DNA of 64,000 bases from a virus, in the IMG/VR virus record IMGVR_UViG_3300046559_001153, positions 160,271 to 224,270 of that record. One strand, 5' to 3'. Shown in pieces: positions 1,136 to 29,863 of the stretch (positions are counted from its first letter, which is position 1; the number at the start of each line of letters is the position of its first letter). The notes below the pieces were generated by a model. It did no database searches and had not been told where the DNA came from. It saw only the letters and a program-made list of their open reading frames with translations. Both the position numbers and the translations under genes were made by a program.

Positions 1136-1810
1136 GTGCTGTTACTGTTCGGGGAACTATCACCGCCGAGCTGGGTCCGCGAAGTCTACTGTGCAGGTTT
1201 CGGCATAGGGCAGCGGTTCAAGCAGGCGGATGCCCCGGAAGTAGTGCACGCGCTCTCAGGCATGCTGTATGTTACCCCCTCGAATTGGGGTTTACTGGCC
1301 GTCCCGAACGCCCTGGTTCGTGGCGTTTATAGCGCCATTGACGAGCCGGGTGTTGAACTCCCAAGTCACAGCGAAAAACCAGGCAAACTGGATGCGCACA
1401 TCAGCGTGTTCCGCCCTGAGGATATCGCGGCGATCGGCGGGCCCGGCAAGTTGACCGAGCGTGGCAAACACTTTCATTACACGACCGGGCAGCTCAAAAC
1501 AGTTCAGCCTGCCGGCTGGCCGCAGATGAGCAAGGTCTGGATGCTCGAGGTTAAGAGTCCGGAGTTACAGACGTTGAGACAGTCGTACGGTCTCACTCCG
1601 CTGCCGCACGACAATGACTTCCAGTTTCACATTACTGTCGGAGTCCGTCGCAAGGGTGTACTGGGTCGTAACGAGATCAGCAAGTCGATCCTGGTCGACG
1701 ACAAACCAGCCGACCCGCTTCCCGTACCACGCAAATTTATCTGCAGCGTCTGCGGTCATGATGACTGTGCTGGCTGCACCGGGACAACACAGAGAGTCCA
1801 CGTTCCATGA
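1136..1810 (+). CDS. 2H phosphoesterase superfamily protein
   Basis: The protein has 224 residues and starts at GTG with a strong TAGGAG six bases upstream. It carries the two His-x-Ser/Thr motifs that define 2H phosphoesterases: H88-I-S90 in DAHISVF and H165-I-T167 in FHITVGV, 77 residues apart. Members (LigT/CPDase, T4 Acb1) open cyclic or 2',3'-cyclic phosphodiester bonds in RNA ends or cyclic oligonucleotides. A C-terminal CSVCGHDDCAGC cluster could bind zinc. The gene overlaps the next by four bases. Its substrate cannot be told: RNA-end processing and degradation of CBASS signalling nucleotides are both possible. Confidence 0.75.
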   Translation: MLLLFGELSPPSWVREVYCAGFGIGQRFKQADAPEVVHALSGMLYVTPSNWGLLAVPNALVRGVYSAIDEPGVELPSHSEKPGKLDAHISVFRPEDIAAIGGPGKLTERGKHFHYTTGQLKTVQPAGWPQMSKVWMLEVKSPELQTLRQSYGLTPLPHDNDFQFHITVGVRRKGVLGRNEISKSILVDDKPADPLPVPRKFICSVCGHDDCAGCTGTTQRVHVP

Positions 1811-5404: not shown

Positions 5405-8400
5405 ATGTCAATCCTGTCTGGCTCCGGCAGCCTGCTCCAGCCGATGCGCCCTGCGGCCCACGAGGATGAGCCTGACAGCCTCACAGACATGTCCAAAGCG
5501 CGTCAAAGGCTGTTTGACCACACCTTGACGGCTGCGCAAGGCCTGGAGCCCCTGGCGAACTCCAAGCACACGTTAAAGCTGACCGACGTCCACTATTCTG
5601 GCCCGGACGAGTATTCTCTAAAGGACCAGAAGAAAGCCATTCTGACAGGTGACACGCTTGGCCGGACGCTGAAAGGCACATTCCAGCTTCTGGATAACGT
5701 CACAGGCCAGCTGGTCGACCAGAAACGGGTGACACTGGCTAACGTGCCTTACCGGACGGACCGTGGTACGTTCATCCACAATGGGACTGAATACGCCGTT
5801 CGAAATCAGATGCGGTTGTTGCCTGGTGTCTTTACCCGTATTCGAGGCAACGGCGAGATTGAAGCCCACACGAACGTTATGCCTGGGAAGGGGCTGAGCC
5901 ACCGCTACTTTCTAGATCCTGACAAAGGCGTGTTCTACATTCGCGTAGCCCAGTCCAAGACGCCGCTAGTGTCGTTGCTCACCGCAATGGGCGTGACCCA
6001 CCATCAATTGCGTGACGCCTGGGGCCCCGAGTTGGCCGCGACCAACTTGACGCATAACGATCCGGCTGACGTAAAGAAACTGGCCGGGAAATTTCTCCCG
6101 CGGATCCCCGAGAATCAGACCGAGGCGCACACGACTGAGCAACTGGTAAATGCCTTTCAGGCCATGGAGCTCGATCCGGAAGTCACTAAACGAACGCTCG
6201 GGCACCCATTTACCAATGTCGGACCGGAGACCATTCTTCGAACGACACAGAAACTGCTTCAATTGCAAAAGGGCGAAGTTGAGCCCGACGATCGTGACCA
6301 CCTGGCCTACCAGAAAATCATGGCGCCCGAGGATTTGTTCTCGGAACGGATTCGTCGCGATGCTGGCAACATTCGCCGTCAGCTGTTGTTCAAAGCCAGT
6401 CAGCGTGGCAATCTGCAGGGCATTGGTTCCCGACCGTTCCAGAAGCAATTGAACTCGGTCATCCTCACCAGCGGTGTCGGTACGGGTCTTGAGGAAACAT
6501 CACCGCTCGAACTGCTGGACAAGATGTCAACGATCACCAGCATGGGTGTCGGTGGACTACCAAGCACGACAGCCATTCCGTTGGAGTCCCGAGCCGTACA
6601 GCCAAGCCATCTCGGATTCATGGATCCACTGAAGACGCCCGAAAGCGAGGCGGCTGGCGTTATTCTGAATATCGCCGGACAGGTCCGTCGTAAGGCTGAT
6701 GGGCAGCTCGCCAAACAATTCACCAATCTGCACACGGGGCAACTCGAGTGGCGTACCCCGCAGGACGTGGCTGATTCAGCCATCGCCTTCCCGGGTGAAA
6801 TGGCCAAACCGGGCAAACGAATCATAGCCATGTTGAATGGTAAGCTGCAGTATGTGTCCAAAGCCGATGTCAAATACGAGCTGCCGCATTTCGAACACGT
6901 CTTCAGCGACGTCACCAATCTGGTGCCGATGAAGTCGGCTTTGAAGGGCCAGCGGGCAGTGATGGGTGCCCGTATGTTGACGCAAGCCCTGCCGCTCGAG
7001 AACCCCGAAGCCCCATTCGTTCAGTCGGCTGTTCCGGGAACGGGCGGGCAGAAGAGTTTTGACGAACACTTCGGTGGATTCATGGGTGCCGTGCGAGCCA
7101 AGCAGGGTGGTCAGGTCACTGCCGTATCGCCGGAAGCCATCACGGTCAAGCACGACGACGGAACGACGCAGAACTACGAGTTGTATGACTCGTTTCCGTT
7201 CAATCGCCGTAGCCGACTGCACAATACGCCAATGGTGCAACCGGGCCAGCGTGTCGGTCCGGACGATCTTCTGGCTAAGTCCAACTTCACCAACGACAAC
7301 GGGGCAATCGCGATCGGCAAGAACGCCTACATCGGATACATGCCGTATGGAGCCGGCACCTACGAAGACGCCCAGCTGGTGTCGGAGAGCTTCGCCAAGA
7401 AACTGCGATCAGAACATTTGTACCAGCACGACGCGACCTGGGGTGACGCACTCGATAAGAAAGGCAAAGCGCCATACGTGTCGCTGTTCCCGTCGAAGTT
7501 TGACCGAAAGCAGTTGGACACGATCGACGAGGATGGGGTCGTCAAGCCGGGCACGGTTGTTGATTACGGCCACCCACTCATTCTGCTGGCAAAGGGGCGA
7601 GAGCACTCGCAAAGCAAAGTGCATCGCAAGGGCCAGCTACAGCACACCGACGCGTCGGTGACCTGGTCGTACAACTCACCCGGTATCGTCCGCGACGTAG
7701 TGAAGACAGACAAAGGACCGATGGTCACTGTGACGTCTATGCGGTCGACACAGGAGTCAGACAAGTTGAGTGACCGATTCGGCGCCAAGGGTGTTATCGG
7801 CAAGATTCTGTCGGACGACTTGATGCCGCGTGACAGCACGGGTCGCCCATTCGACATGTTACTGAATCCGGCTGGTATCCCGTCGCGACTCAATCCGGTG
7901 AAGATCCACGAAGCCACACTCGGCAAGATTGCGGAAAAGACTGGCAAGCCGTACAAAATTGAGGATTTTTCGAACATTGCCGACCTGCGAGCCTTCGTCG
8001 AACAGGAAGCCCAGAAGCATGGCGTACCCGACACAGAGACGGTCTTCGACCCAGGTACCAACAGATACATCCCCGGCGTGAAGACTGGCGTGCAGTGGAT
8101 CATGAAGCTGCACCATATCGCCGAAGACAAAGAACAGGGTCGCGGTGCCTCGGGTGGTTACACACTCAGCGGTGTACCGGCCAAGGGTGGTGACGGTGAG
8201 TCAAGTAAGAAGCTGTCCATGGGGGAAACGAATGCCCTGTTGTCTCACGGTGCGTTGAATCTGCTGCGTGATTCGCAATTGTTACGAGGCCAGCGAAACG
8301 AACCATATTGGCTGGCCTTCATGCAGGGGCACCGCCCGCCCGAGCCCGGTATCCCGCTTGTTTACGAGGAATTCATCAACGAATTGAAAGCTGCTGGGAT

Positions 8401-9823
8401 CAACCCAGTTCGCAACGGGGCCAGCATGAACGTCATGGCCTTGACGAACAAGGACATTGACCAGTTGTCGGGCGGCCGCGAATTGCAAAATGGGAACACG
8501 GTCAACTTTGACGGTGATCTGAGCCCGGTGGCCGGCGGCTTGTTCGATCCAGCTTTGACTGGCGGGCATATGGGCCGCCGATGGTCGCACGTAACGCTGG
8601 CCGACCCGATGCCCAATCCGGTGATGGAAGAGCCTATACGTAAACTGCTGGCCCTGACTAAGAACAAATTCGAAGGGGTTCTGGCTGGGACTGAATCGAT
8701 CGGTTCGCACGGTACAGGACCGCAAGCTCTGTTCAAAGCCCTGCAGGGGATCAATCTGGACAAGGAGCTTTTGCTCGCCAGGATGCAGATCAAGTCGGGC
8801 AAGAAAACAGCCCGTGATGTGGCCGTTCGCAAACTAGGGTATCTCAAAGCAGCCAAGTCGCTGGGGATCCACCCGTCAGACTGGATGCTCGACAAAGCAC
8901 CAATTCTTCCCCCCCTCTTTCGTCAGGTGGCGAAGATTTCCGATTCGGGCCAACCAATTATTTCCGATGCCAATTACCTTTACAAAGAGCTGATTGACGC
9001 GAATACGACGCTCAAGAAGCTGAAGGGGGTGGTGGGTGAAAACGTGGGTCAAGAACGCCTTGCGTTATATAACTCGTTCAAAGCAGTCACTGGCCTGGGC
9101 GACCCAAGCCATCCGAAACTGGTCGAGAAGGGAGTCAAAGGCCTGCTTGCCGGGATCTTCGGAAGTAGTCCCAAGTGGGGCTCAGTCCAGTCCCGATTAC
9201 TCAGTACCCCTGTGGATATTGTTGGGCGTGCCACTGTACAGCCCAACGCCGACCTCGACATGGATTCCATTGGACTTCCCGAAGAACGAGCCTGGACCGT
9301 CTACAAAAACTTCATAGTCCGTCGCCTTAAACGCCAAGGCATGCCGTTGACGAATGCCCTGCAGGCTCACAAGGATCAGACCCCGCTGGCGAAGAAAGCC
9401 CTGCTTGATGAGCTGGAGACGCGACCAGTTATCTACAGCCGGGCGCCCATCCATCATAAGTACGGGATCATGGCCGCTTGGCCGCAGCTGGTGAAAGGTA
9501 ACGCCGTTCACTTGTCACCGCTGGTGACGGTTGGATTTGGTGCGGACTTTGATGGCGATCAGATGAACTACCATGTGCCTGTGAGTGATGCGGAAGTGCA
9601 GGACGCTGTCGAGCGAATGCTGCCGTCTCGCAATTTGATCAGCCCGGCCGACTTTCGAACGCCCATGTTCATGCCACGGCACGAAATGCTAATGGGATTG
9701 TTCGAATCAACCAGACCGGATAGAATTGGTCGAAGTATCACATTTCGCAATAAGCAAGACGCTATTGCCGCTTATCGACGCGGAGAGTTGACCGTGCAGG
9801 ATTCGGTGACAATTCTCCATTGA
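5405..9823 (+). CDS. RNA polymerase beta subunit fused to N-terminal half of beta'
   Basis: The 1472-residue chain forms the beta half and the catalytic double-psi barrel of a multisubunit RNA polymerase. Beta signatures occur in order: TDRGTFIHNGTEYAV (~residue 118), SHLGFMDPLKTPESEA (~401), DRFGAKGVIGKIL (~790) and NPAGIPSRLNP (~820). Beta' starts near residue 1030 without an obvious N-terminal zinc finger. It continues with VDIVGRATVQP (~1270) and the Mg-binding DFDGD at residues 1381-1385, then LISPADFRTPMFMPRHEM. The chain stops at residue 1472, before the beta' funnel, bridge helix and trigger loop, which are encoded from 16462. Covalent beta-beta' fusions are known in some bacteria (Helicobacter, Wolbachia). 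A palindrome precedes the start. Confidence 0.95.
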   Translation: MSILSGSGSLLQPMRPAAHEDEPDSLTDMSKARQRLFDHTLTAAQGLEPLANSKHTLKLTDVHYSGPDEYSLKDQKKAILTGDTLGRTLKGTFQLLDNVTGQLVDQKRVTLANVPYRTDRGTFIHNGTEYAVRNQMRLLPGVFTRIRGNGEIEAHTNVMPGKGLSHRYFLDPDKGVFYIRVAQSKTPLVSLLTAMGVTHHQLRDAWGPELAATNLTHNDPADVKKLAGKFLPRIPENQTEAHTTEQLVNAFQAMELDPEVTKRTLGHPFTNVGPETILRTTQKLLQLQKGEVEPDDRDHLAYQKIMAPEDLFSERIRRDAGNIRRQLLFKASQRGNLQGIGSRPFQKQLNSVILTSGVGTGLEETSPLELLDKMSTITSMGVGGLPSTTAIPLESRAVQPSHLGFMDPLKTPESEAAGVILNIAGQVRRKADGQLAKQFTNLHTGQLEWRTPQDVADSAIAFPGEMAKPGKRIIAMLNGKLQYVSKADVKYELPHFEHVFSDVTNLVPMKSALKGQRAVMGARMLTQALPLENPEAPFVQSAVPGTGGQKSFDEHFGGFMGAVRAKQGGQVTAVSPEAITVKHDDGTTQNYELYDSFPFNRRSRLHNTPMVQPGQRVGPDDLLAKSNFTNDNGAIAIGKNAYIGYMPYGAGTYEDAQLVSESFAKKLRSEHLYQHDATWGDALDKKGKAPYVSLFPSKFDRKQLDTIDEDGVVKPGTVVDYGHPLILLAKGREHSQSKVHRKGQLQHTDASVTWSYNSPGIVRDVVKTDKGPMVTVTSMRSTQESDKLSDRFGAKGVIGKILSDDLMPRDSTGRPFDMLLNPAGIPSRLNPVKIHEATLGKIAEKTGKPYKIEDFSNIADLRAFVEQEAQKHGVPDTETVFDPGTNRYIPGVKTGVQWIMKLHHIAEDKEQGRGASGGYTLSGVPAKGGDGESSKKLSMGETNALLSHGALNLLRDSQLLRGQRNEPYWLAFMQGHRPPEPGIPLVYEEFINELKAAGINPVRNGASMNVMALTNKDIDQLSGGRELQNGNTVNFDGDLSPVAGGLFDPALTGGHMGRRWSHVTLADPMPNPVMEEPIRKLLALTKNKFEGVLAGTESIGSHGTGPQALFKALQGINLDKELLLARMQIKSGKKTARDVAVRKLGYLKAAKSLGIHPSDWMLDKAPILPPLFRQVAKISDSGQPIISDANYLYKELIDANTTLKKLKGVVGENVGQERLALYNSFKAVTGLGDPSHPKLVEKGVKGLLAGIFGSSPKWGSVQSRLLSTPVDIVGRATVQPNADLDMDSIGLPEERAWTVYKNFIVRRLKRQGMPLTNALQAHKDQTPLAKKALLDELETRPVIYSRAPIHHKYGIMAAWPQLVKGNAVHLSPLVTVGFGADFDGDQMNYHVPVSDAEVQDAVERMLPSRNLISPADFRTPMFMPRHEMLMGLFESTRPDRIGRSITFRNKQDAIAAYRRGELTVQDSVTILH

Positions 9824-16185: not shown

Positions 16186-16424
16186 TGTACATCGAAGCCA
16201 TCGAACGATTCGGTAAGCCGCCCGTGCGGTTGGAAGTCAGTCAGGTCGTCATTTACCGAGACGACGGAACCCCCATCTCGCTGGCCAGTTTGTACGGCCC
16301 CGATGGGGCCATTTTCGTTGAAACGGCCGAGGATCCGGAAAAATTCAACAAGGCCCTGCAGACACTGGGGATCGATAAAACAGTCATCGTCGACAACCTG
16401 GTCATGTCCGAACCAACCCAATAA
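16185..16424 (+). CDS. small hypothetical protein
   Basis: The 79-residue product starts at the ATG that overlaps the previous stop by one base. It contains beta-strand-like stretches (RLEVSQVVIYRDDG, TVIVDNLVM) and an acidic middle. No known domain is recognised. It immediately precedes palindrome copy 2 and the second half of the polymerase. Confidence 0.6.
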   Translation: MYIEAIERFGKPPVRLEVSQVVIYRDDGTPISLASLYGPDGAIFVETAEDPEKFNKALQTLGIDKTVIVDNLVMSEPTQ

Positions 16425-16439
16425 CTTTTTACAAAGTTA
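16422..16439 (+). promoter_or_regulatory. recurrent palindrome, copy 2
   Basis: TAACTTTTTACAAAGTTA overlaps the stop codon of the previous gene. As RNA its outer seven bases pair perfectly. It ends 22 bases before the start of the RNAP beta' C-terminal/ligase gene. Confidence 0.65.
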
Positions 16440-16461
16440 CAGAGACCAGCAGGTAGGCAAG

Positions 16462-19400
16462 ATGCCCGCGACCTTCATAGGGAAAATGGGTCAGCTGCTG
16501 GTCAACGAGGCTCTGCCCGAAGATCTGCGTAACGGTAAGACCCTGGATTCAAGGGGCTTGACCGACCTGCTGCGGGATGTGGCTGAACGTCACCCCGACA
16601 AGTACCGGGACATCTCACACAAGTTGACCCAGCTGGGTGAAGACGCAGCTCAGCAACTCGGCGGCTATTCGTTCGGGCTCAATGCCATGCGACGGGCCGG
16701 GTCAGCCAATGTCATTCGCGATCGCATCAAAAGCCAGGTTCAGTCACTGCTCGACAATGACAACCTGTCAGATGATGCACGCGAGTCCCAGATCGTCAAA
16801 CTCCTGGGTCAGGCCCAGTCAGAACAAGAGAACGCCGTCTACGACGAGAGTTTGAAAGAGAACAATCCGATCGCCTTGCAGATCAAGTCAGGCGCTCGCG
16901 GCAAGAAGATGGCTCTCAATTCTCTGCGTGGGTCCGATCTGCTGTATGTCGACCATCGCGACCGGCCAGTGCCCATCCCCGTCCTGCGGAGTTACCCTGA
17001 GGGCCTGTCGCCGGCCGAGTATTGGGCTGGGGCCTATGGTGCTCGTCACGGCATTGTCAGTGTGAAGCTGGGCACAGCCCAGTCAGGCTTCCTGGCGAAA
17101 CAACTCAATCAAGCGACCCACCGGCTGATTGTGACGCATGAGGATGACGCTCCGGTCGATACGGTCCGAGGCCTGCCAGTCCCTGTCGACGATAACGACA
17201 ATGTGGGGGCCTTGCTGGCCCATCCGGCTGGTGGTTTTGGGCGGAACACGGTTCTGACGCCCAAGGTTCTGAAGTCCCTGCATGATGGCGGCATTCAGAG
17301 AATTCTGGTACGCAGCCCGACTGTTGGCGGGGCACCTGATGGGGGTCTCTACTCACGCGATGTTGGCATTCGAGAAACTGGCGGTCTGCCGCCCAAAGGA
17401 ACGTTCTCCGGTCTGCAGGCCGGTCAGGCGATCTCTGAGCCGTTGTCGCAGGCCACCTTGTCCGCCAAGCACGCAGGGGGCGTTGCCGGAGCATCCAAAT
17501 CAGTGTCAGGCTTTGCCTGGATCAACGCCCTGGTTCAGATCCCCAAGGTATTTCCTGGCGGGGCAACGCATTCAGAAGTAGACGGGCGTGTGCAGCAGAT
17601 TACCAAGGCACCTGGCGGCGGTTTGCACGTGCAGGTGAACGGACTGGAGCATTACGTGCCGCACGGGCTGGCTTTGACAGTTGCCCCGGGCGACGCGGTT
17701 GAAGCTGGCGACGTGCTCAGTGAGGGCATTCCCAGCCCGGCCGAGATCGTCAAGCACAAGGGAATTGGTGAAGGTCGCCGGTACTTTGTGGATGCCATGC
17801 GTAAAGCATTGACCGACTCTGGTGTTCGAAACAATCGCCGAAATCTCGAACTCATCAGTCGTGGTCTGATCAATCACGTCGAGCTCGACGCGGAGATCGG
17901 CGAACACGCGCCAGACGACGTTGTCCCATTCGACACGATCGAACGGGATTACGAGCCGAGAGAAGGCAGTCACACGCTGCCTGTCCACCAGGCAATCGGC
18001 CAGTATCTCGAGAAGCCCTACCTGCACCACACGATTGGTACGAAGGTCAAATCGAGCATGTTGCCGGACTTCAAGCATTTTGGAGTTGAATCGGTTCACG
18101 TGCACAAAGATCCGCCGCTATTCCATCCGCTCATGGTTCGCGGTATGTACAACTTGCAGCACGACCCGGACGCCATGACAAGGAATCTAGGTTCAGGGCT
18201 GCAGGCAAGCTTCCTGGACTCGGTCCACCGTGGCGGCGGCAGCGACGAAAAGGGTACCAGCTATGTTCCCGGCCTGGCCCGTACTGTGGATTTTGGCCGC
18301 ATTGGCGTTATCCGGCCGACTGTGGTTACACCGCAGAGATCGACTATGAAAATCGCAGCTGGCAGCCCGATTGCCCCGGCTCTCGACCCGAAACCGGCTC
18401 CCATCAAACCACTGGCGCCACCACAGCCTCAAATAAAACCGATTGCTCCTCCACCGTCGCCGGCTTTGCAGGCGAAGCCTCAATCTGTGCTGGGCGATAG
18501 TTCGATCAACGGGTTCGGTGACTTCTTCCATCATGCCGGTAATCTGCTGCGTGGGCCCGGGTACGACGCCGGGATGGCACCGGCAACTGCCGGTTTCAAG
18601 AACACGATGACGCCGCAGCAGTTTGGCCAACAGATGCGGACTGATCTTCCCGGTCTGCCTAATCCGGTTGCACCAGCCGCACAACCCGGAGTATGGGATC
18701 AAGCGAAAGCCATAGCGCCTGGCCTGGCTACCAATCTCGGGGTTAATGTAGCTGGGCAGCAGATAGCAAAAAATACGTTGGTGCGAGCCGTTCCCAGATT
18801 AGGAGTAGGTGCCGCCTCAAAGCTCTTGCCTCTCGGTATCGGCGCCGCAGTTGCCGAGCCGATTGGGTGGCTCGGTAAAAAGACCGGAATTCCAGGCTTC
18901 GAAAACGATGCAGCATATGACACCAATGCGTATCGTCAAGAGGCCGAAGGTTTGCACTACGGGATGCCGGCCGGCTGGCGTCAGGACACCAATCGACCGT
19001 GGTATATTCGAATGGGAGACTGGTTGGCCAATGACGCAGGAACAGCCGTAATGCAGCCTCAGACGGCCGTCATGAACGCGTTTGGCAAGTCGAGCGATGA
19101 CGCCTTGGGAATTCCTTCTCGCGACGAGATGGGAGACTTATCCAAGCTCGAAACGGGCAAGCTCTATGACCTGTTTACACAGCTCCATAACGCCACCAAA
19201 GCCGGTCCCCACACTGATCTGAGGATTGGCGATCCGGAGCAGGGGCTGCACTCTTGGGCCGTGCCGAAGGGTTTACCCGAGTCTGGGAAGAAGCATCTGG
19301 CTGTCCACCAGCCAATTCACGAGCATTCCTACGGGGGCTGGTCGGGCACGATTCCCGAGGGCGAATACGGGGCCGGTACGGTCAAGAGTCAGATCAAGGG

Positions 19401-20613
19401 CAAGGCCCTGGTGACCGAGTCGGGTCCGGGCAAACTGCATTTTACGACAGCTCACATGAAGCATCCCGAGCGGTTCACTGTGGTGGCGCCAAAAAGCTTC
19501 GGTGAAAACAATCACCTGCTGCTCAACACGACGCCGACCGAGCCGCTGCCGTACCAGAAGATCCACTACAAGAAAGTTCCGACCGAACAGGTCGAAGGAA
19601 AGTTGAAGGAGTTAGAACCCGGTTCGTCGGTGCAGGCCAAGATTGACGGTGCATCGAGCCTGGTCAAACTGCTCAAGGATCAGCTCGAACTGTATTCGTA
19701 CCGGGCATCAAAGCCGACAGGAAAACCAATCATTCACACGGAGAAGGTGTTACATGGCCGGCCTCGGATTGAGATCCCTCCTGAGTACCACAACAGCATC
19801 CTGCGCGGTGAGTTACACGGGGTCAAGCAAGACTCCGAAGGAAAAGAAACGGTTATTCATCCCAGCGAACTTGGTGGTATCCTCAACTCAACGATTGCTC
19901 ACTCGCTGGCAAAACAAGAGACCTCAGGCGTTCGGCTCCGTAACGCACTGTTCGACATTCAACAGGTTGGCAACACGCCAATTGACTTCTCCAAGACGCC
20001 ATATTCTGAACGTCGGGAACACTTGAAGAGCATTCTGCCGTCGCTGCCGCAGGACATTTTTCACTTGACCGACGAAGCCAAGACACCGGAAGATGCGCTG
20101 AAGTTGTGGAAAGACATTGGTAGCGGGGATCACCCGAAAACTGAGGAAGGAATCGTTATCCACTCTCCAACGGGCAAGCCCCAGAAGGCTAAGTACATTG
20201 AAGATCACGACGTTCACATCCGCGGTATTTTCCCTGGCGAAGGCCGTCTTGCTGGAACTCATGCCGGCGGCTTTGAGTACTCTGCTGAGCCTGATGGTCC
20301 TATTCTCGGCCGTGTTGGCACTGGCTTTTCTGACGATGTTCGTCGCCAGATGCATGATCGACCTGACGATTTCGTGGGGCGGGTTGCCCGGGTGAAGTCC
20401 CAGGAGAAGTTGCAGTCGGGTGCGTTGAGAGCTCCGGCTTATATCGCTCTCCACGAAGATTACCCAGTGTCGTCGGCTTTGAATAAGGCGGCCGAGCTAG
20501 AACGCGTCCGTCTGCGTGTGAAAGAATTGGCAGAGAAAAAGGCGACCGCTTCTCCAATTTCTCTGGCCAGAGAACGCCTTCAAGCTATCCGAGCGAAAAA
20601 TTTGGGCCTATAA
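16462..20613 (+). CDS. RNAP beta' C-terminal half fused to LigD-type phosphoesterase and ATP-dependent DNA ligase
   Basis: The 1383-residue polypeptide begins at the ATG that starts beta' homology (TFIGKMGQLLVNEALPE, as in TTVGRxxxNxxLPxGL). SGARGKKMALNSLRG is near residue 142, the bridge helix (YGARHGIVSVKLGTAQSGFL) near 187-215 and a trigger-loop region (LSQATLSAKHAGG, His337) further on; the beta' C-terminus ends near residue 610. A Pro-rich linker (~635-665) and Gly/Ala hydrophobic segment (~755-800) follow. A LigD 3'-phosphoesterase (H909, H917, D919, R921; SWAVPKG; PEGEYGAGTV) comes next. It ends with an ATP-dependent ligase: nucleotidyl Lys1060 in KIDGASSL, RGELHG, EEGIVIHS, KAKY and a C-terminal OB part. 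I know of no such fusion. Confidence 0.92.
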   Translation: MPATFIGKMGQLLVNEALPEDLRNGKTLDSRGLTDLLRDVAERHPDKYRDISHKLTQLGEDAAQQLGGYSFGLNAMRRAGSANVIRDRIKSQVQSLLDNDNLSDDARESQIVKLLGQAQSEQENAVYDESLKENNPIALQIKSGARGKKMALNSLRGSDLLYVDHRDRPVPIPVLRSYPEGLSPAEYWAGAYGARHGIVSVKLGTAQSGFLAKQLNQATHRLIVTHEDDAPVDTVRGLPVPVDDNDNVGALLAHPAGGFGRNTVLTPKVLKSLHDGGIQRILVRSPTVGGAPDGGLYSRDVGIRETGGLPPKGTFSGLQAGQAISEPLSQATLSAKHAGGVAGASKSVSGFAWINALVQIPKVFPGGATHSEVDGRVQQITKAPGGGLHVQVNGLEHYVPHGLALTVAPGDAVEAGDVLSEGIPSPAEIVKHKGIGEGRRYFVDAMRKALTDSGVRNNRRNLELISRGLINHVELDAEIGEHAPDDVVPFDTIERDYEPREGSHTLPVHQAIGQYLEKPYLHHTIGTKVKSSMLPDFKHFGVESVHVHKDPPLFHPLMVRGMYNLQHDPDAMTRNLGSGLQASFLDSVHRGGGSDEKGTSYVPGLARTVDFGRIGVIRPTVVTPQRSTMKIAAGSPIAPALDPKPAPIKPLAPPQPQIKPIAPPPSPALQAKPQSVLGDSSINGFGDFFHHAGNLLRGPGYDAGMAPATAGFKNTMTPQQFGQQMRTDLPGLPNPVAPAAQPGVWDQAKAIAPGLATNLGVNVAGQQIAKNTLVRAVPRLGVGAASKLLPLGIGAAVAEPIGWLGKKTGIPGFENDAAYDTNAYRQEAEGLHYGMPAGWRQDTNRPWYIRMGDWLANDAGTAVMQPQTAVMNAFGKSSDDALGIPSRDEMGDLSKLETGKLYDLFTQLHNATKAGPHTDLRIGDPEQGLHSWAVPKGLPESGKKHLAVHQPIHEHSYGGWSGTIPEGEYGAGTVKSQIKGKALVTESGPGKLHFTTAHMKHPERFTVVAPKSFGENNHLLLNTTPTEPLPYQKIHYKKVPTEQVEGKLKELEPGSSVQAKIDGASSLVKLLKDQLELYSYRASKPTGKPIIHTEKVLHGRPRIEIPPEYHNSILRGELHGVKQDSEGKETVIHPSELGGILNSTIAHSLAKQETSGVRLRNALFDIQQVGNTPIDFSKTPYSERREHLKSILPSLPQDIFHLTDEAKTPEDALKLWKDIGSGDHPKTEEGIVIHSPTGKPQKAKYIEDHDVHIRGIFPGEGRLAGTHAGGFEYSAEPDGPILGRVGTGFSDDVRRQMHDRPDDFVGRVARVKSQEKLQSGALRAPAYIALHEDYPVSSALNKAAELERVRLRVKELAEKKATASPISLARERLQAIRAKNLGL

Positions 20614-20880: not shown

Positions 20881-23382
20881 ATGTCCATTCTGCTTGCAGG
20901 TAGCCAGTCGCTCGCGAAACGCGCTAACATCGGCGGCGATCCTGAAGGGAACTTCGAACAATCGTTCGCCTCGCTGGGCTATAACTTCCTGAGTGAAAAA
21001 GCCCCCAGGCTGCTCGAGCACATGCTGGGCTTCCAGCTGCTTGACCGCAACGACGACATGTCACGAGCTGTCGGCGTTTATGGTTTCCAGGCTGATACCA
21101 AGCGACTGTACATGCCTTTGTTTTTCCTGAATGGGGAACTTCGCGGCCAGGAATTGCTCTTCGTTCAGAACAAGGACGAGGGGCAGTTTGTCCCCATGAA
21201 GGAGAACTGGGTCAACTTCCTGCTCAGCAAGTCGCCACACATCATGGGCGAGGCGTCGCAGAAGGATGTGTTCCAGATGGGCGGGATGTGGCCGGACCTG
21301 CGTCCATTCACGAACGCTTACCGCGGTAGCAAATACTCATGCGACATGCCGCGTATCCAAGAGTGGGCCAAGCCGTTCATGCCCGTCTATGCTCGTCTCT
21401 GTACGACCAACCCTCTGCGTGACACTCGTTACGCGAAGATCGCGACAGCCCAAAACCTGCTGAGCGAATCTCCGATGGCCGTGAAAATGGCCATCGATCT
21501 GTGTGACCGATTCCCGAACGTCAAGGCGGCCATGCACCGGTGTTACGGAGCGGACGTCTTTGAGAAGGCTCTACTGACCATCAAAGCCCGACTGACCAAA
21601 GAGGCGTCGGATCGAGGCAGCATTCTCTCGTTCAAGCCGCAGAAGGTGGCAGTCGCGCGTTCCCGATCGAGCATACTGCCCGACCTGACCCCCCAGGACC
21701 CCGTTAAGCTGGGGGCTTTGAAGATTATGCGGGTCGATCCGAATGAACGTTTTACGCACAACATTCCCGATCGATCACGCGAAGAGGCCACTGGCGACAC
21801 CCGCCGCGGCGCCGTCGTGATCACCGACAAACGCTTGCCGCAGGACAAGTCGACCCTGTACAACACGGCGATCCATACGGCCTACACGAATCCAACTCGA
21901 TCTTCCCTGGCTGAGGTGCTGGCCGGGGCCGGCAAGTTCGAGAAGTGCCTGATCATCCATCGCCCATACTCCGGCAAGGGGCAGCACACCTTCGTGACTG
22001 TCGTCCGAGCGGAAGGTCAAAGTTCAGCCCGCAACTGGATCAACTCGGACGCTACGAACATTTACGTTCGCCAGCCGATTGAAAGCCAGTTCGATTTCAA
22101 GACCTGGTTCGACGGATTGTCGTCCGCCAAGATGACCAAGGACAGCACGTATGTCGCGCTGACCGGTGACGGCCGCGGTACATTGCCGTTTACAGTGAAC
22201 AGCGTTCTGGATGATGACTGTTACCGAGTCCAATACGAGACCGGACACAAGCGACCACAGTACGCTCACATGTCGCGAAATTACAGCACCAACGGATTGG
22301 GCGACCGCGACACGCCGCCCAATCCGTCGGGTTACACGGATTACAATGCCTTGCTGCATTTGAACGGCCGTAAGGGCTCCAGCATCCACGCCGTTGGTGG
22401 CGAACTGTGGATCCCCGACAGCGCTAAAATCCTCAAGATCCAAGACCCATTTGACCCAGAAGATGACAGTGACGAAGACTCAATTTCGCCGCTCCAGCCT
22501 GGCAACCTGATTGACGTGCAGAATCAGATCTACCAGAAAACAGCGTCCCTCAAGCTCTGGACGGTTGGGTCAGACGAAATCGCTCTGTCGACAAAGTTTG
22601 GCACGCGCCGCATGAGCAAACAAGCCGCTTACGTGGCGATGGTTGCTGACCTTGGGCTGGGGATTGATGATGCAGACGCGGCCATGGACAAAGTGACCAA
22701 AGCCGGTTCGGCCAAGTTCAGGATTCTGTACGGACCGTTCTACCAGAAGCGGGCTGACGCGTGGCCCGGCTACGGCGGCGACCTGCTTGATCAGGGCCCG
22801 AGTGCTCCCCGAGAAGGGCCGCCACCGACCGGATCCGGCTTCCCGTGGTACGGCGGAGCGATCAACAAGTATCCGCAGGAGGAGTACCTGGAAGTTCCAG
22901 GACTCAATGCCTACTCAACCAATCCCTGGATCTACGATCCCACTCGTATCCCCGATCCAGGGACTGGCCCCGGCGCCTACGGCACAGACCAGGCCGGGTC
23001 GGGAAGCTTCTCTCAGGGTCAGGATTCGTCATCCCAGGGCGTCCAAAATGCGGCGGCATCTGGCCAGAAGGAAGTCTTCGATACGACCATCTTGAGCAAC
23101 CTGCTCAACTCGGTTCGACAGGAGAGCGTGGTCGATCGCTACTTGAGCGACCTGATGACTGGGCTTGACCGAATCGGGCGTATTCTGTTCAGCTTCTACT
23201 GGCACATGGATGACGTCAAAGAGCACTACGGTGCGGCCGAGACGCCCGATCTCATCGATGCCATGCGAAATGCGTTTGAAGAATGCGGCGACGTCACGTT
23301 GAAACTTCGTCAGAACTCGATGAACCCTGACATGGGTGAAATGGGATCGCCGAACGTTGAAGACGTGGCTCGTGCTGACTGA
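20881..23382 (+). CDS. large virion-type protein of unknown family
   Basis: The 833-residue protein lies upstream of the head genes. Residues ~75-130 form a folded domain (YGFQADTKRLYMPLFFLNGE, ENWVNFLLSKSPHIMG). The middle has mixed alpha/beta sequence. Residues ~645-740 are Pro/Gly/Ser/Gln-rich linker, and the C-terminus is helical and acidic. It contains LAKRA near the N-terminus plus MSKQA and YQKRA, so it may be a substrate of the morphogenetic protease. A portal would be expected near here, but I see no portal signature. Its size and position favour a structural role. Confidence 0.6.
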   Translation: MSILLAGSQSLAKRANIGGDPEGNFEQSFASLGYNFLSEKAPRLLEHMLGFQLLDRNDDMSRAVGVYGFQADTKRLYMPLFFLNGELRGQELLFVQNKDEGQFVPMKENWVNFLLSKSPHIMGEASQKDVFQMGGMWPDLRPFTNAYRGSKYSCDMPRIQEWAKPFMPVYARLCTTNPLRDTRYAKIATAQNLLSESPMAVKMAIDLCDRFPNVKAAMHRCYGADVFEKALLTIKARLTKEASDRGSILSFKPQKVAVARSRSSILPDLTPQDPVKLGALKIMRVDPNERFTHNIPDRSREEATGDTRRGAVVITDKRLPQDKSTLYNTAIHTAYTNPTRSSLAEVLAGAGKFEKCLIIHRPYSGKGQHTFVTVVRAEGQSSARNWINSDATNIYVRQPIESQFDFKTWFDGLSSAKMTKDSTYVALTGDGRGTLPFTVNSVLDDDCYRVQYETGHKRPQYAHMSRNYSTNGLGDRDTPPNPSGYTDYNALLHLNGRKGSSIHAVGGELWIPDSAKILKIQDPFDPEDDSDEDSISPLQPGNLIDVQNQIYQKTASLKLWTVGSDEIALSTKFGTRRMSKQAAYVAMVADLGLGIDDADAAMDKVTKAGSAKFRILYGPFYQKRADAWPGYGGDLLDQGPSAPREGPPPTGSGFPWYGGAINKYPQEEYLEVPGLNAYSTNPWIYDPTRIPDPGTGPGAYGTDQAGSGSFSQGQDSSSQGVQNAAASGQKEVFDTTILSNLLNSVRQESVVDRYLSDLMTGLDRIGRILFSFYWHMDDVKEHYGAAETPDLIDAMRNAFEECGDVTLKLRQNSMNPDMGEMGSPNVEDVARAD

Positions 23383-27247: not shown

Positions 27248-29863
27248 ATGATGACCAAAGTGATTAGCCCGGCCGGCTGGGACTTCGGCACTGCCCTGAC
27301 CGAGATGGTCAAGGTATCCAGCCGCGGACTGATTGGCAGTGACCGTAACTCGCTGATCAAGCGAGCCGGTTACGCATTTGCCAACCTGGTCGATCACTCG
27401 GATTTGAAGCCCGGAGACGTCCCCATTCATCAGATTGCGATGGGGGCCACCGAACGTTATCTGGCCAACCGTAACGGAGATGGATTCAAACGGGCCAACC
27501 TGATTCGAACGATCGACACGTTTGTGAAGCGTGCCCGGTACTACCGCAATCACCAGAACAAGGATCCCCGCAAGTCGTACGGGGTGATTAAGAGAGCGGC
27601 TTACCACGACCCGATGGATCGTGTTGAGCTTTTGATCTTTTTGAATGGGACAAAAGAGGCGGCTGACCGTAATGGTGGCCTGGTAGCCGATCGCGAACTT
27701 CAGCAACTCGAAAAGACCGGTGAGCTGGCTGGCAGCATGGCTTGCATCTGGGATCCTGAATCGCTGATCTGCACGCCAAATGGTTATATCCCGATCAAAT
27801 CAATTCGTCCTGGCATGTTGGTGCCTACGCACGCTGACCGATGGCAGAAGGTCACTGAATTGCGACGCAGAAAGTATTCTGGCAAATTGTTATCGATCAA
27901 ACTTGACGGTTTACCTGAACCATTGCAGTTGACATCCGATCACCCGATGTACGCCAAGTTGTTGTCGCAGTACGCGGCGATGTCTCAAGGACAACGACCG
28001 GCAGGCCAATGGGCTCGTGAAGTTTCCGAGGGTGCGACCGCTTTTGAATGGCAATGCTCTGAGCATTTGCAGCCAGGCGACCGGCTTAACTGTCGAAAGC
28101 TTCCGCGTGTGCCCGGTGTGGCGGGCATCTCAAGTATTCCCCTGGCCGCTTTGCTGGGAACATATATCGCAGAAGGTAACGTTAGTTATTGCAAAGATAA
28201 TCCAAATATCGTGGTTTACACTGTCAACGCTGCGGACTGGGCCGTAAGAGGTGTTCCGGCTGCGGTTGAAGCGTACTGGCCGGACGTGACGTGCAATCTG
28301 GAACCTAAAAAGAACAGCAAGGTTTCATTTTCGATCCTGGTTAATTCCTCTGAATTGGCTCGTTGGTGCGTGCGGTTGCACGGGTCTGGTGTGTGGAATA
28401 AAACGATCCCCGCGGAGTTGCTCAACGCCACCAACGAAGCTAAACGAGAATTTATGGGTCGTTGGCTTGACGGCGACGGTTGGTGTGACAAAAAAGGTGG
28501 ACACTGGTCTTCTTGCAATTACGGTTTGATCATGCAGGGTCGTGATCTGTTGCTGACTCTCGGAATCGCCGCATCGATTTACAAAATCGATCACGCAAAA
28601 TGCGAGACTTCCGGCTATCAGGGTTCAGGCATCGAATACACCCTTAATGTTTCCAATTTCGATCTGGAGACTCTGGTTGGGCATTCGCAGAAAATTTCGA
28701 ACAATCCTTATTTGCGATCAGCGAAAGAGAAGAAAAAGGAGCATCAGGTTTGTTTATATCCGGTCGGCGACACGACAGCTTATCGAGTTAAATCAATCGG
28801 AATTACAGAAGCGGAGAATGTGGATGTCTGGAATTTCGAAGTCGAATACGACCATTCGTACTCTCTGGCCGGTGTCATTAGCCATAACTGCACCGTACCC
28901 AACGATGAGTGCTCGTCGTGTGGTAACCTGGCACCGACCCGTGAGGAGTACTGCCTGGGTGAAGACGAGGGCGGCCATTGCAAACATGGCGGATGCCGTA
29001 ACAGGTTGACCCGCGTGTGCGAAGACGGCCATGTCCTGCATGTCGATAATCCGGATCCAACATTCATCGACTTTTCGAATGTGGTCCGTCCGGCTGATCG
29101 AATCGCTTACGGTGGAATGGCTGACTACCTGATGAAAGCGGCAAGTGGCTCAGCGGTCGGCGGTGCCGAATTGGCTGAACAGATCGGTCTGACCGTGCCG
29201 CTGGATATCGCCTTCTCTTACGCCATGCGAGGCCGACCACACGTCGAGCCGCAGTTCAAATTGGCGTGTGCCTTCGCCGTCCTCGAACAGTCTGTACCGG
29301 TATCGCCCGTGTATGGTGCGACGCCGGCGGCACAGTTCTCGACAGCCCAGTTAGGGAAACCCGGTACGACCAAATTCGCCGAGGCGCTGACTGCCCTGGC
29401 GGACGAGGGAATCATTCTGCCGCTGCACACCTTCTGTGAATTGTGGTCGGGCGACGCCAAGGTTGAGAAGGCCGCACAAGTAGCACTGACCGGAATTTAC
29501 ACGCGACTGATTCGATCAGCCGATTTTCCGGAAAAACTTGCGGGCCACATTTTTCAGCCAGCTCGTACAACTACATCCGCGGCAAAAACGTGGGCACGAA
29601 AACAGGCGGCTGACTTCTCGGTACTGCCCGAGCACATCGAAAATCGACGCTGGTTGGCCGCGTTAAATGGCACGACCGACAATAACTTTGTAAAAAGTAA
29701 ACAGGCATCCGACATCACTGAATCAGCTTCGAGCGCGGCTGACGGGATGCAAATCGCCGAGCGCTATGCCGTCTACAAATTGGCAGCACTTTGCAAAATC
29801 GCAGAACTAACTGACGATTTTGCGTTGACAGCAGTGACTGCATTACATCAGAATCACCATTAA
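27248..29863 (+). CDS. putative prohead protease interrupted by an intein
   Basis: The precursor has 871 residues; removing the intein (166-547) leaves 489. The extein resembles phage capsid-maturation proteases: RNGDGFKRANL, then NHQNKDPRKSYG (candidate catalytic His102), MDRVELLIFLN, and SMA/C-TVPNDECSSCGN, in which Ser163 is the candidate nucleophile. The intein sits three residues after Ser163, so splicing would be needed for activity. Cys-rich residues (CSSCGN, CKHGGCRN) follow the junction. The C-terminal part is helical, with several K-x-A motifs and an embedded palindrome copy. Scaffold and capsid genes follow, as expected. Protease identity rests on motif resemblance. Confidence 0.75.
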   Translation: MMTKVISPAGWDFGTALTEMVKVSSRGLIGSDRNSLIKRAGYAFANLVDHSDLKPGDVPIHQIAMGATERYLANRNGDGFKRANLIRTIDTFVKRARYYRNHQNKDPRKSYGVIKRAAYHDPMDRVELLIFLNGTKEAADRNGGLVADRELQQLEKTGELAGSMACIWDPESLICTPNGYIPIKSIRPGMLVPTHADRWQKVTELRRRKYSGKLLSIKLDGLPEPLQLTSDHPMYAKLLSQYAAMSQGQRPAGQWAREVSEGATAFEWQCSEHLQPGDRLNCRKLPRVPGVAGISSIPLAALLGTYIAEGNVSYCKDNPNIVVYTVNAADWAVRGVPAAVEAYWPDVTCNLEPKKNSKVSFSILVNSSELARWCVRLHGSGVWNKTIPAELLNATNEAKREFMGRWLDGDGWCDKKGGHWSSCNYGLIMQGRDLLLTLGIAASIYKIDHAKCETSGYQGSGIEYTLNVSNFDLETLVGHSQKISNNPYLRSAKEKKKEHQVCLYPVGDTTAYRVKSIGITEAENVDVWNFEVEYDHSYSLAGVISHNCTVPNDECSSCGNLAPTREEYCLGEDEGGHCKHGGCRNRLTRVCEDGHVLHVDNPDPTFIDFSNVVRPADRIAYGGMADYLMKAASGSAVGGAELAEQIGLTVPLDIAFSYAMRGRPHVEPQFKLACAFAVLEQSVPVSPVYGATPAAQFSTAQLGKPGTTKFAEALTALADEGIILPLHTFCELWSGDAKVEKAAQVALTGIYTRLIRSADFPEKLAGHIFQPARTTTSAAKTWARKQAADFSVLPEHIENRRWLAALNGTTDNNFVKSKQASDITESASSAADGMQIAERYAVYKLAALCKIAELTDDFALTAVTALHQNHH
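27743..28888 (+). mobile_element. intein with LAGLIDADG homing endonuclease
   Basis: The 382-residue element starts at Cys166 (CIWDPESLICTPNGYIPIKS, block A) and has a block B (LTSDHPMY). LLGTYIAEG and FMGRWLDGDGW are the two dodecapeptide motifs of a LAGLIDADG endonuclease. It ends with WNFEVEYDHSYSLAG and VISHN, followed by Cys548 as the +1 residue. All key splicing residues (C1, block B His, terminal His-Asn, C+1) are present, so it is probably active. It is inserted next to the putative catalytic Ser of the host protein. Confidence 0.92.
29683..29700 (+). promoter_or_regulatory. recurrent palindrome, copy 4 (inside a gene)
   Basis: TAACTTTGTAAAAAGTAA lies within the protease coding sequence and encodes part of NNFVKSK. 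It is nearly identical to copy 1 over 20 bases, although the surroundings are unrelated. It is about 195 bases upstream of the scaffold-like gene at 29895. Confidence 0.5.

What the first reader, a model, noticed from the sequence alone, without database searches (positions are those of the whole stretch)
16462..20613. RNA polymerase beta' half fused to a LigD-type 3'-phosphoesterase and ATP-dependent DNA ligase
One uninterrupted frame carries beta' bridge-helix and trigger-loop sequence, then a linker, then the full motif sets of a 3'-phosphoesterase (H909, H917, D919, R921, SWAVPKG) and an ATP ligase (K1060 in KIDG, EEGIVI, KAK). I know of no polymerase-ligase fusion. It could repair nicks or ends in incoming DNA while the first transcription begins, or tether the ligase to transcribed DNA.
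Basis: partly seen in the sequence, partly recalled or inferred. Interest (0 to 1): 0.92.

Follow-up and report, generated by a model that had tools for sequence, protein, structure and literature searches.

The report
Phage RNA polymerase fused to ligase
In one uncultured large phage, a subunit of the phage's own RNA polymerase (of a type that a related phage carries inside its particle) is one continuous protein with a DNA-end-cleaning enzyme and a DNA ligase, which suggests that repair tools may enter the cell tied to the polymerase that starts infection.

Summary
One uninterrupted frame (16462-20613, 1383 aa) encodes the C-terminal half of an RNA polymerase beta' subunit, a ~268-aa low-complexity linker, a LigD-type 3'-phosphoesterase (PE) and an ATP-dependent ligase, all with intact catalytic motifs. 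Coding signal is continuous through the linker, and the fusion sits between genes that are neighbours in relatives, so a simple assembly join is unlikely. The phage is a 224-kb contig of the metagenomic 'mReC'-like lineage; the rest of the polymerase (beta fused to beta'N) is at 5405-9823. In Salmonella phage Arash the orthologous polymerase is among the most abundant virion proteins (published mass spectrometry), so this one is probably packaged. I found >100 relatives of the beta' half; none carries PE-ligase in the same frame. The PE-ligase module is nonetheless typical of the lineage: a separate gene, or part of ORFs of up to 2977 aa with 2H phosphoesterase, SNF2 helicase or NUDIX domains. 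The fusion is therefore a rare relocation of a lineage-typical module onto a probable virion polymerase, in the manner of 'polyvalent' injected phage proteins. Repair of incoming DNA is the best reading but untested; cleavage of the chain into separate enzymes is the main rival.

The parts
16462..20613 (+). fused ORF, 1383 aa: RNAP beta'C - linker - PE - ATP ligase - tail
   Evidence: start by homology of residues 1-20 with beta'C relatives
16462..18297 (+). RNA polymerase beta' C-terminal half (residues 1-612), with bridge helix (~177-222) and trigger loop (~317-345)
   Evidence: Pfam PF04998, PDB beta' chains to 1e-29, alignments A1/A4/A8, model confident to residue 612
18298..19101 (+). linker (613-880): K-x-A element TMKIAAG just after the end of beta'C homology, Pro-rich stretch, Gly/Ala-rich stretch
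   Evidence: no homologue found; pLDDT < 50 throughout, with no aligned relatives for this part; coding signal continuous
19108..19521 (+). LigD-type 3'-phosphoesterase (PE) domain; H909 H917 D919 R921 H953 Y957; preceded by AFGKSSDDALGIPSR
   Evidence: Pfam PF13298; PDB 3p4h 8e-12; invariant residues
19552..20460 (+). ATP-dependent DNA ligase, nucleotidyltransferase plus OB fold; K1060 nucleophile
   Evidence: PF01068 28.0 bits when scanned with the PE alone; AF2 pLDDT 86.9 for PE-ligase; Foldseek hits to DNA ligases incl. LigD ligase domains
20461..20610 (+). C-terminal tail with K-x-A element ALNKAAELE
   Evidence: sequence; low pLDDT
5405..9823 (+). rest of the polymerase: beta fused to beta' N-terminal half, catalytic DFDGD at residue 1381
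   Evidence: Pfam Rpb2_6, Rpb2_3, Rpb2_2, Rpb1_2; motif; homologues in 36 loci
1136..1810 (+). 2H phosphoesterase gene (2H-SAK); in relatives this domain is N-terminal in the same ORF as PE-ligase
   Evidence: PF22547 3.5e-11; 40-54% matches to L145/L147/L149 multi-domain ORF N-termini
20881..23382 (+). downstream gene, homologue of the gene that follows beta'C in most relatives; same locus position as virion protein Arash Gp218
   Evidence: synteny; Gp218 in virion (PMC10585845)
32296..33234 (+). major capsid protein
   Evidence: phrog_2522 9e-7; matches Arash MCP gene

Best explanation
A genuine in-frame gene fusion in a jumbo-size Caudoviricetes of the multisubunit-RNAP lineage. The protein is the C-terminal half of beta' of a probable virion RNA polymerase and completes it together with the beta-beta'N protein (5405-9823). 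Its long linker carries a LigD-type PE-ligase module that in sister phages sits in other ORFs of the virion/RNAP gene region. Most likely the polymerase is packaged and enters with the genome: RNAP starts early transcription while the tethered PE trims 3'-phosphate or 3'-ribonucleotide ends and the ligase seals nicks in the incoming phage DNA. Shown here: the fusion frame, intact motifs, family membership, synteny, absence of another recognisable ligase in the contig. Taken from literature: virion location of the Arash orthologue. Inferred: packaging of this protein, enzymatic activity, DNA (not RNA) as substrate, an intact chain in vivo.
For: Continuous frame and coding signal; invariant active sites over 12 PE-ligases; AF2 model of PE-ligase at pLDDT 86.9 matching DNA ligases, LigD among them; insertion exactly between beta'C and the next syntenic gene, which a single chimeric join would not give; sister contigs L070/L071 (SH-aLRT 94) keep PE-ligase in other ORFs; Arash virions hold Gp206 (3516 spectra), Gp216 (1210) and the helicase Gp217; 17 of 17 records of 100 kb or more found by the PE-ligase query and re-searched encode this lineage's beta', as do 15 of 15 found by the PE query; no NAD-dependent ligase and no other PE-ligase in the contig; phage virion RNAPs fused to other enzymes or virion proteins are known (AR9 HD domain, N4, P23-45).
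Against: No second contig with the same fusion; the exact junction matched nothing else in viral contigs, with the caveat that near-copies of the window's record may be left out. No relative of the fused form, so selection on the fusion cannot be tested. K-x-A elements at the junctions and in-frame start codons before the PE (e.g. ATG 18346, ATG 19051) allow processing or internal initiation. The contig is linear and may be incomplete, so another ligase may exist. Arash lacks the PE.
Confidence: 0.5

Rival explanations
1. Polyprotein: the ORF is a concatenation of packaged proteins that is cut by a phage protease (or also started internally) at K-x-A junctions, so that beta'C and PE-ligase act as separate enzymes; the fusion only couples their dosage and packaging.
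For: PE-ligase lies in ORFs of 560-2977 aa with varying partners; the hydrophobic-x-K-x-A motif is enriched 2-3x in the first 40 aa of cluster proteins, by family 18.6% against 8-9% internally and 6.2% after shuffling, and recurs just before many PE domains; a Pro-rich and Gly-rich tagged gene lies 3' of beta'C in L070/L071 and resembles the linker in make-up. Iyer et al. 2017 (PMC5512222) propose processing of multidomain phage proteins by metallopeptidases.
Against: No protease and no cleavage event shown; the motif could be a packaging signal that is never cut; TMKIAAG at the beta'C end fits the consensus poorly (T at -2).
Confidence: 0.33
2. RNA repair and counter-defence: 2H phosphoesterase, PE and ligase together heal and seal RNA cut by host nucleases, or RNA-DNA hybrid nicks.
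For: 2H + PE + ligase occur in one ORF in L145, L147 and L149 and the 2H gene is present in the window; the ligase of L053 also matches Pfam RNA_ligase; Arash virions hold two RNA ligases.
Against: Closest structural matches are DNA ligases with an OB fold; Pfam places the window's ligase with DNA_ligase_A_M.
Confidence: 0.15
3. Ordinary replication or recombination ligase of the phage, not packaged, whose gene happens to have fused to the polymerase gene.
For: It is the only recognisable ligase in the contig.
Against: The fused partner is an orthologue of an abundant virion protein and lies in the virion gene cluster.
Confidence: 0.15
4. Sequence or assembly error: a lost stop codon or a chimeric join made one ORF of two genes.
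For: Single contig; all relatives keep the parts separate.
Against: Frame-0 coding signal unbroken across 4.1 kb; gene order on both sides as in relatives, so two joins would be needed. A lost stop through a one-base error between two already adjacent genes is not excluded.
Confidence: 0.07

Closest known systems
mReC: multimeric-RNAP-encoding Caudovirales (Weinheimer and Aylward 2020, PMC7481178)
   Same: Large metagenomic tailed phages with bacterial-type beta and beta' homologues that are easy to recognise by sequence
   Different: The paper does not mention a ligase in its text; here beta' is split, beta is fused to beta'N, and beta'C is fused to PE-ligase. Membership was not tested against their tree.
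Salmonella phage Arash RNAP Gp206/Gp216 (PMC10585845)
   Same: beta-beta'N plus beta'C (27% identity), same gene order around them, found in virions
   Different: beta'C ends at 606 aa; a separate helicase gene (Gp217) follows; no PE found
Bacterial LigD (NHEJ ligase)
   Same: PE and ATP ligase domains with the same catalytic motifs
   Different: No primase-polymerase domain in this protein, and Ku was not looked for; fused to an RNAP subunit. A LigD-type PrimPol-PE protein does occur in a relative (L029, probably L054 too).
Phage polyvalent proteins and virion RNAP fusions (Iyer 2017 PMC5512222; N4 vRNAP; AR9 HD domain fused to a vRNAP subunit, PMC7598289; P23-45 TMP-RNAP, PMC10770324)
   Same: Enzymes joined in one chain with a virion RNAP or other packaged protein, genes near virion genes
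   Different: No PE or ATP ligase partner was found in the passages read; Iyer et al. state that polyvalent 2H domains were never seen with RNA ligases, whereas here 2H shares ORFs with PE-ligase in relatives

Membership tests
Multisubunit (two-barrel) RNA polymerase beta' | Rpb1 domain 5 region with bridge helix and trigger loop | tested here: met
   PF04998 3e-17; PDB beta' chains
Multisubunit (two-barrel) RNA polymerase beta' | catalytic DFDGD in the companion chain | tested here: met
   residue 1381 of 5405-9823
Multisubunit (two-barrel) RNA polymerase beta' | zinc-ribbon cysteines in this half, as in bacterial beta' and Arash (not universal in phage enzymes) | tested here: not met
   LTCxAxxGVCxKCYG of Arash is PTVGGAPDGGLYSRDVG here; cysteines also absent from the consensus of the 16-sequence alignment
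LigD 3'-phosphoesterase | catalytic H,H,D,R,H,Y | tested here: met
   invariant in 12 sequences; equivalence to Pseudomonas LigD H42 H48 D50 R52 H84 Y88 from general knowledge
ATP-dependent DNA ligase | KxDG, E, D, EG, KxK motifs and OB fold | tested here: met
Bacterial LigD / NHEJ system | primase-polymerase domain in the same protein | tested here: not met
   no such Pfam match in the ORF
Bacterial LigD / NHEJ system | Ku partner | not tested
   no Ku search was run
Virion RNA polymerase | protein present in the particle | not testable with these tools
   orthologue shown in Arash virions only
Polyvalent phage protein | two or more unrelated enzymatic domains in one chain encoded among virion genes | tested here: met
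mReC lineage | placement in the mReC clade of the RNAP tree | not tested
   their alignment was not available; inferred from type and setting

The most novel reading that the evidence does not exclude
A virion-delivered polymerase with a built-in end-healing and ligation machine, which repairs nicks or breaks in the incoming genome while the first transcripts are made: transcription-coupled repair at the moment of infection.
Probability: 0.25. Interest if true: 0.88.

Novelty: new variant of a known kind. Interest (0 to 1): 0.68.

Why it matters
No natural fusion of a multisubunit RNA polymerase subunit with a DNA ligase was found in the papers searched. More broadly, a large, mostly uncultured phage lineage appears to keep a LigD-type end-repair module (PE-ligase, often with 2H phosphoesterase or helicase) in its virion/RNAP gene region, which raises the testable idea that phages bring DNA or RNA repair enzymes into the cell along with their polymerase. 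The small PE-ligase, which can be expressed alone, and the cultured Arash group make parts of this testable.

Tried and rejected
Whole-protein scan of viral contigs gave nothing because its patterns were taken from one sequence; likewise a PE-only scan from one sequence. Intein or homing insertion as the source of the extra length: inteins are in beta'C of L022, L028 and probably others, but no intein domain was reported in the window's ORF. Chance frame: rejected by motifs and homology. Assembly chimera by one join: rejected on synteny. Literature for a polymerase-ligase fusion or phage LigD: none found. A PDB entry modelling RPOB with DNLJ (9a6z) surfaced in the fold search, but no paper on it was found. 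The PF01068 search of the own contig missed even the fused ligase, so it cannot exclude further divergent ligases.

Full report
OBSERVATION. The window is bases 160271-224270 of a 224,270-base linear virus record. The frame 16303-20613 has no internal stop; beta'C homology begins at the ATG at 16462, and the part upstream of it overlaps another ORF. Pfam finds RNA_pol_Rpb1_5, LigD_N and DNA_ligase_A_M in the same protein. Codon-usage scores favour this frame in every 300-base step from 16462 to the end, through the linker as well.

THE POLYMERASE. The beta' half aligns over its whole length with beta'C proteins of about 600 aa: Arash Gp216 and Vibrio phage D181 at 27% and metagenomic phages at up to 56%. 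The other half of the enzyme is the beta-beta'N protein at 5405-9823 with DFDGD. beta' is thus split after its catalytic barrel, the site also described for jumbo-phage polymerases (PMC7598289). The zinc-ribbon cysteines of Arash are missing here and in the consensus of the close relatives. In Arash, mass spectrometry of particles found Gp206 as the most detected protein (3516 spectra), Gp216 with 1210, the helicase Gp217 with 1148 and Gp218 with 1149 (PMC10585845); that paper notes that carry-over of abundant proteins is possible.

THE PE-LIGASE. PE matches solved PE structures (3p4h, 8e-12). Twelve homologous PE-ligases share all catalytic residues. The model of residues 881-1383 is confident (pLDDT 86.9) and its fold matches DNA ligases, LigD ligase domains among them; no PE structure is among the 50 listed fold matches, so PE rests on sequence. 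The linker (613-880) is modelled with low confidence, but no relative covers it.

RELATIVES. Of 126 loci with a beta'C match, only the window ORF and its own copy L001 also carry PE or ligase; the 126 include repeat fetches of some contigs and a few cellular-type polymerases. In the further records searched in place, PE-ligase and beta' lie at different coordinates. PE or PE-ligase is found instead as a standalone gene of about 560 aa (L151, L152), with SNF2 helicase (L146), with a 2H phosphoesterase N-terminus (L145, L147, L149), with NUDIX (L053), or PE with helicase-like sequence (L043) or with LigD PrimPol (L029). In L173 the PE-ligase gene lies about 0.5 kb upstream of beta'C on the same strand; in several close relatives it is 13-24 kb upstream (coordinates). 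The window's nearest kin by tree, L070 and L071 (SH-aLRT 94, quick method), carry PE-ligase in large separate ORFs. The simplest history is that the module moved next to and fused with beta'C on the window's branch, leaving the 2H domain as its own gene at 1136-1810. Every record of 100 kb or more reached by the PE-ligase query and re-searched also encodes this beta' (17 of 17), so the module is strongly associated with this lineage.

IS THE FUSION REAL. In most relatives beta'C is followed directly or after a small gene by the homologue of 20881-23382. Here the PE-ligase lies exactly between them, so a chimera would need two joins. A one-base loss of a stop codon between adjacent genes cannot be excluded without reads. 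No second contig with the junction was found, and near-copies of the window's record may be hidden from that search.

MECHANISM. Shown: frame, motifs, folds, synteny. From literature: the orthologous polymerase is in virions. From general knowledge of LigD: PE removes 3'-phosphates and 3'-ribonucleotides and the ligase then seals nicks. Inferred: that this protein is packaged and works on incoming DNA. The main rival is a polyprotein that is cut. A motif, hydrophobic-x-K-x-A, is 2-3 times more frequent in the first 40 residues of proteins of these clusters than elsewhere or after shuffling and recurs before many PE domains; it may be a packaging or cleavage signal, which was not tested. A further rival, RNA repair, rests on the 2H-PE-ligase combination.

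COMPARISON AND VERDICT. The protein is built like a phage polyvalent protein on a probable virion polymerase. Known relatives of that idea are N4 vRNAP, the AR9 HD fusion and the P23-45 tape-measure RNAP. The combination with PE and ligase was not found in the literature searched. It is not a LigD, since it lacks the primase-polymerase domain. I rate it a new variant of a known kind, with high interest if the enzyme acts as a tethered repair machine at entry.

Noticed in passing
window and loci L017-L198: A hydrophobic-x-K-x-A motif is enriched in the first 40 residues of proteins in these virion/RNAP clusters (family level 18.6% vs 8-9% internal, 6.2% shuffled) and recurs at joints of multi-domain ORFs; possible packaging or cleavage signal.
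   Followed up: partly
window 27248-29863: Hint and LAGLIDADG matches suggest an intein in this late-cluster gene, which has homologues in 28 loci.
   Followed up: no
L022, L028 (domain matches); L111, L112, L115, L116, L120, L122 (extra length inside beta'C): beta'C carries inteins in L022 and L028, and probably in the other loci, where long insertions interrupt the same gene.
   Followed up: partly
L029:8013-9299, L054:9170-10525: LigD-type primase-polymerase and PE in one protein (L029 by Pfam; L054 by PE match and similar length) next to phage RNAP genes.
   Followed up: partly
L053:9932-14407, L145:6182-15115, L153:4310-10978: Very long multi-domain ORFs (1491-2977 aa) with PE plus 2H phosphoesterase, NUDIX, GNAT, helicase and other domains.
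   Followed up: partly
L122: A Planctomycetia MAG contig carries a close beta'C (48%), a hint at planctomycete hosts for the group.
   Followed up: no
records G066, G068, G076, G086-G090: beta'C lies in frames of 2034-2962 aa, suggesting a single-chain polymerase in part of the lineage.
   Followed up: no
L114:9917-13111: Another beta'C with a ~440-aa C-terminal extension, without PE or ligase.
   Followed up: no
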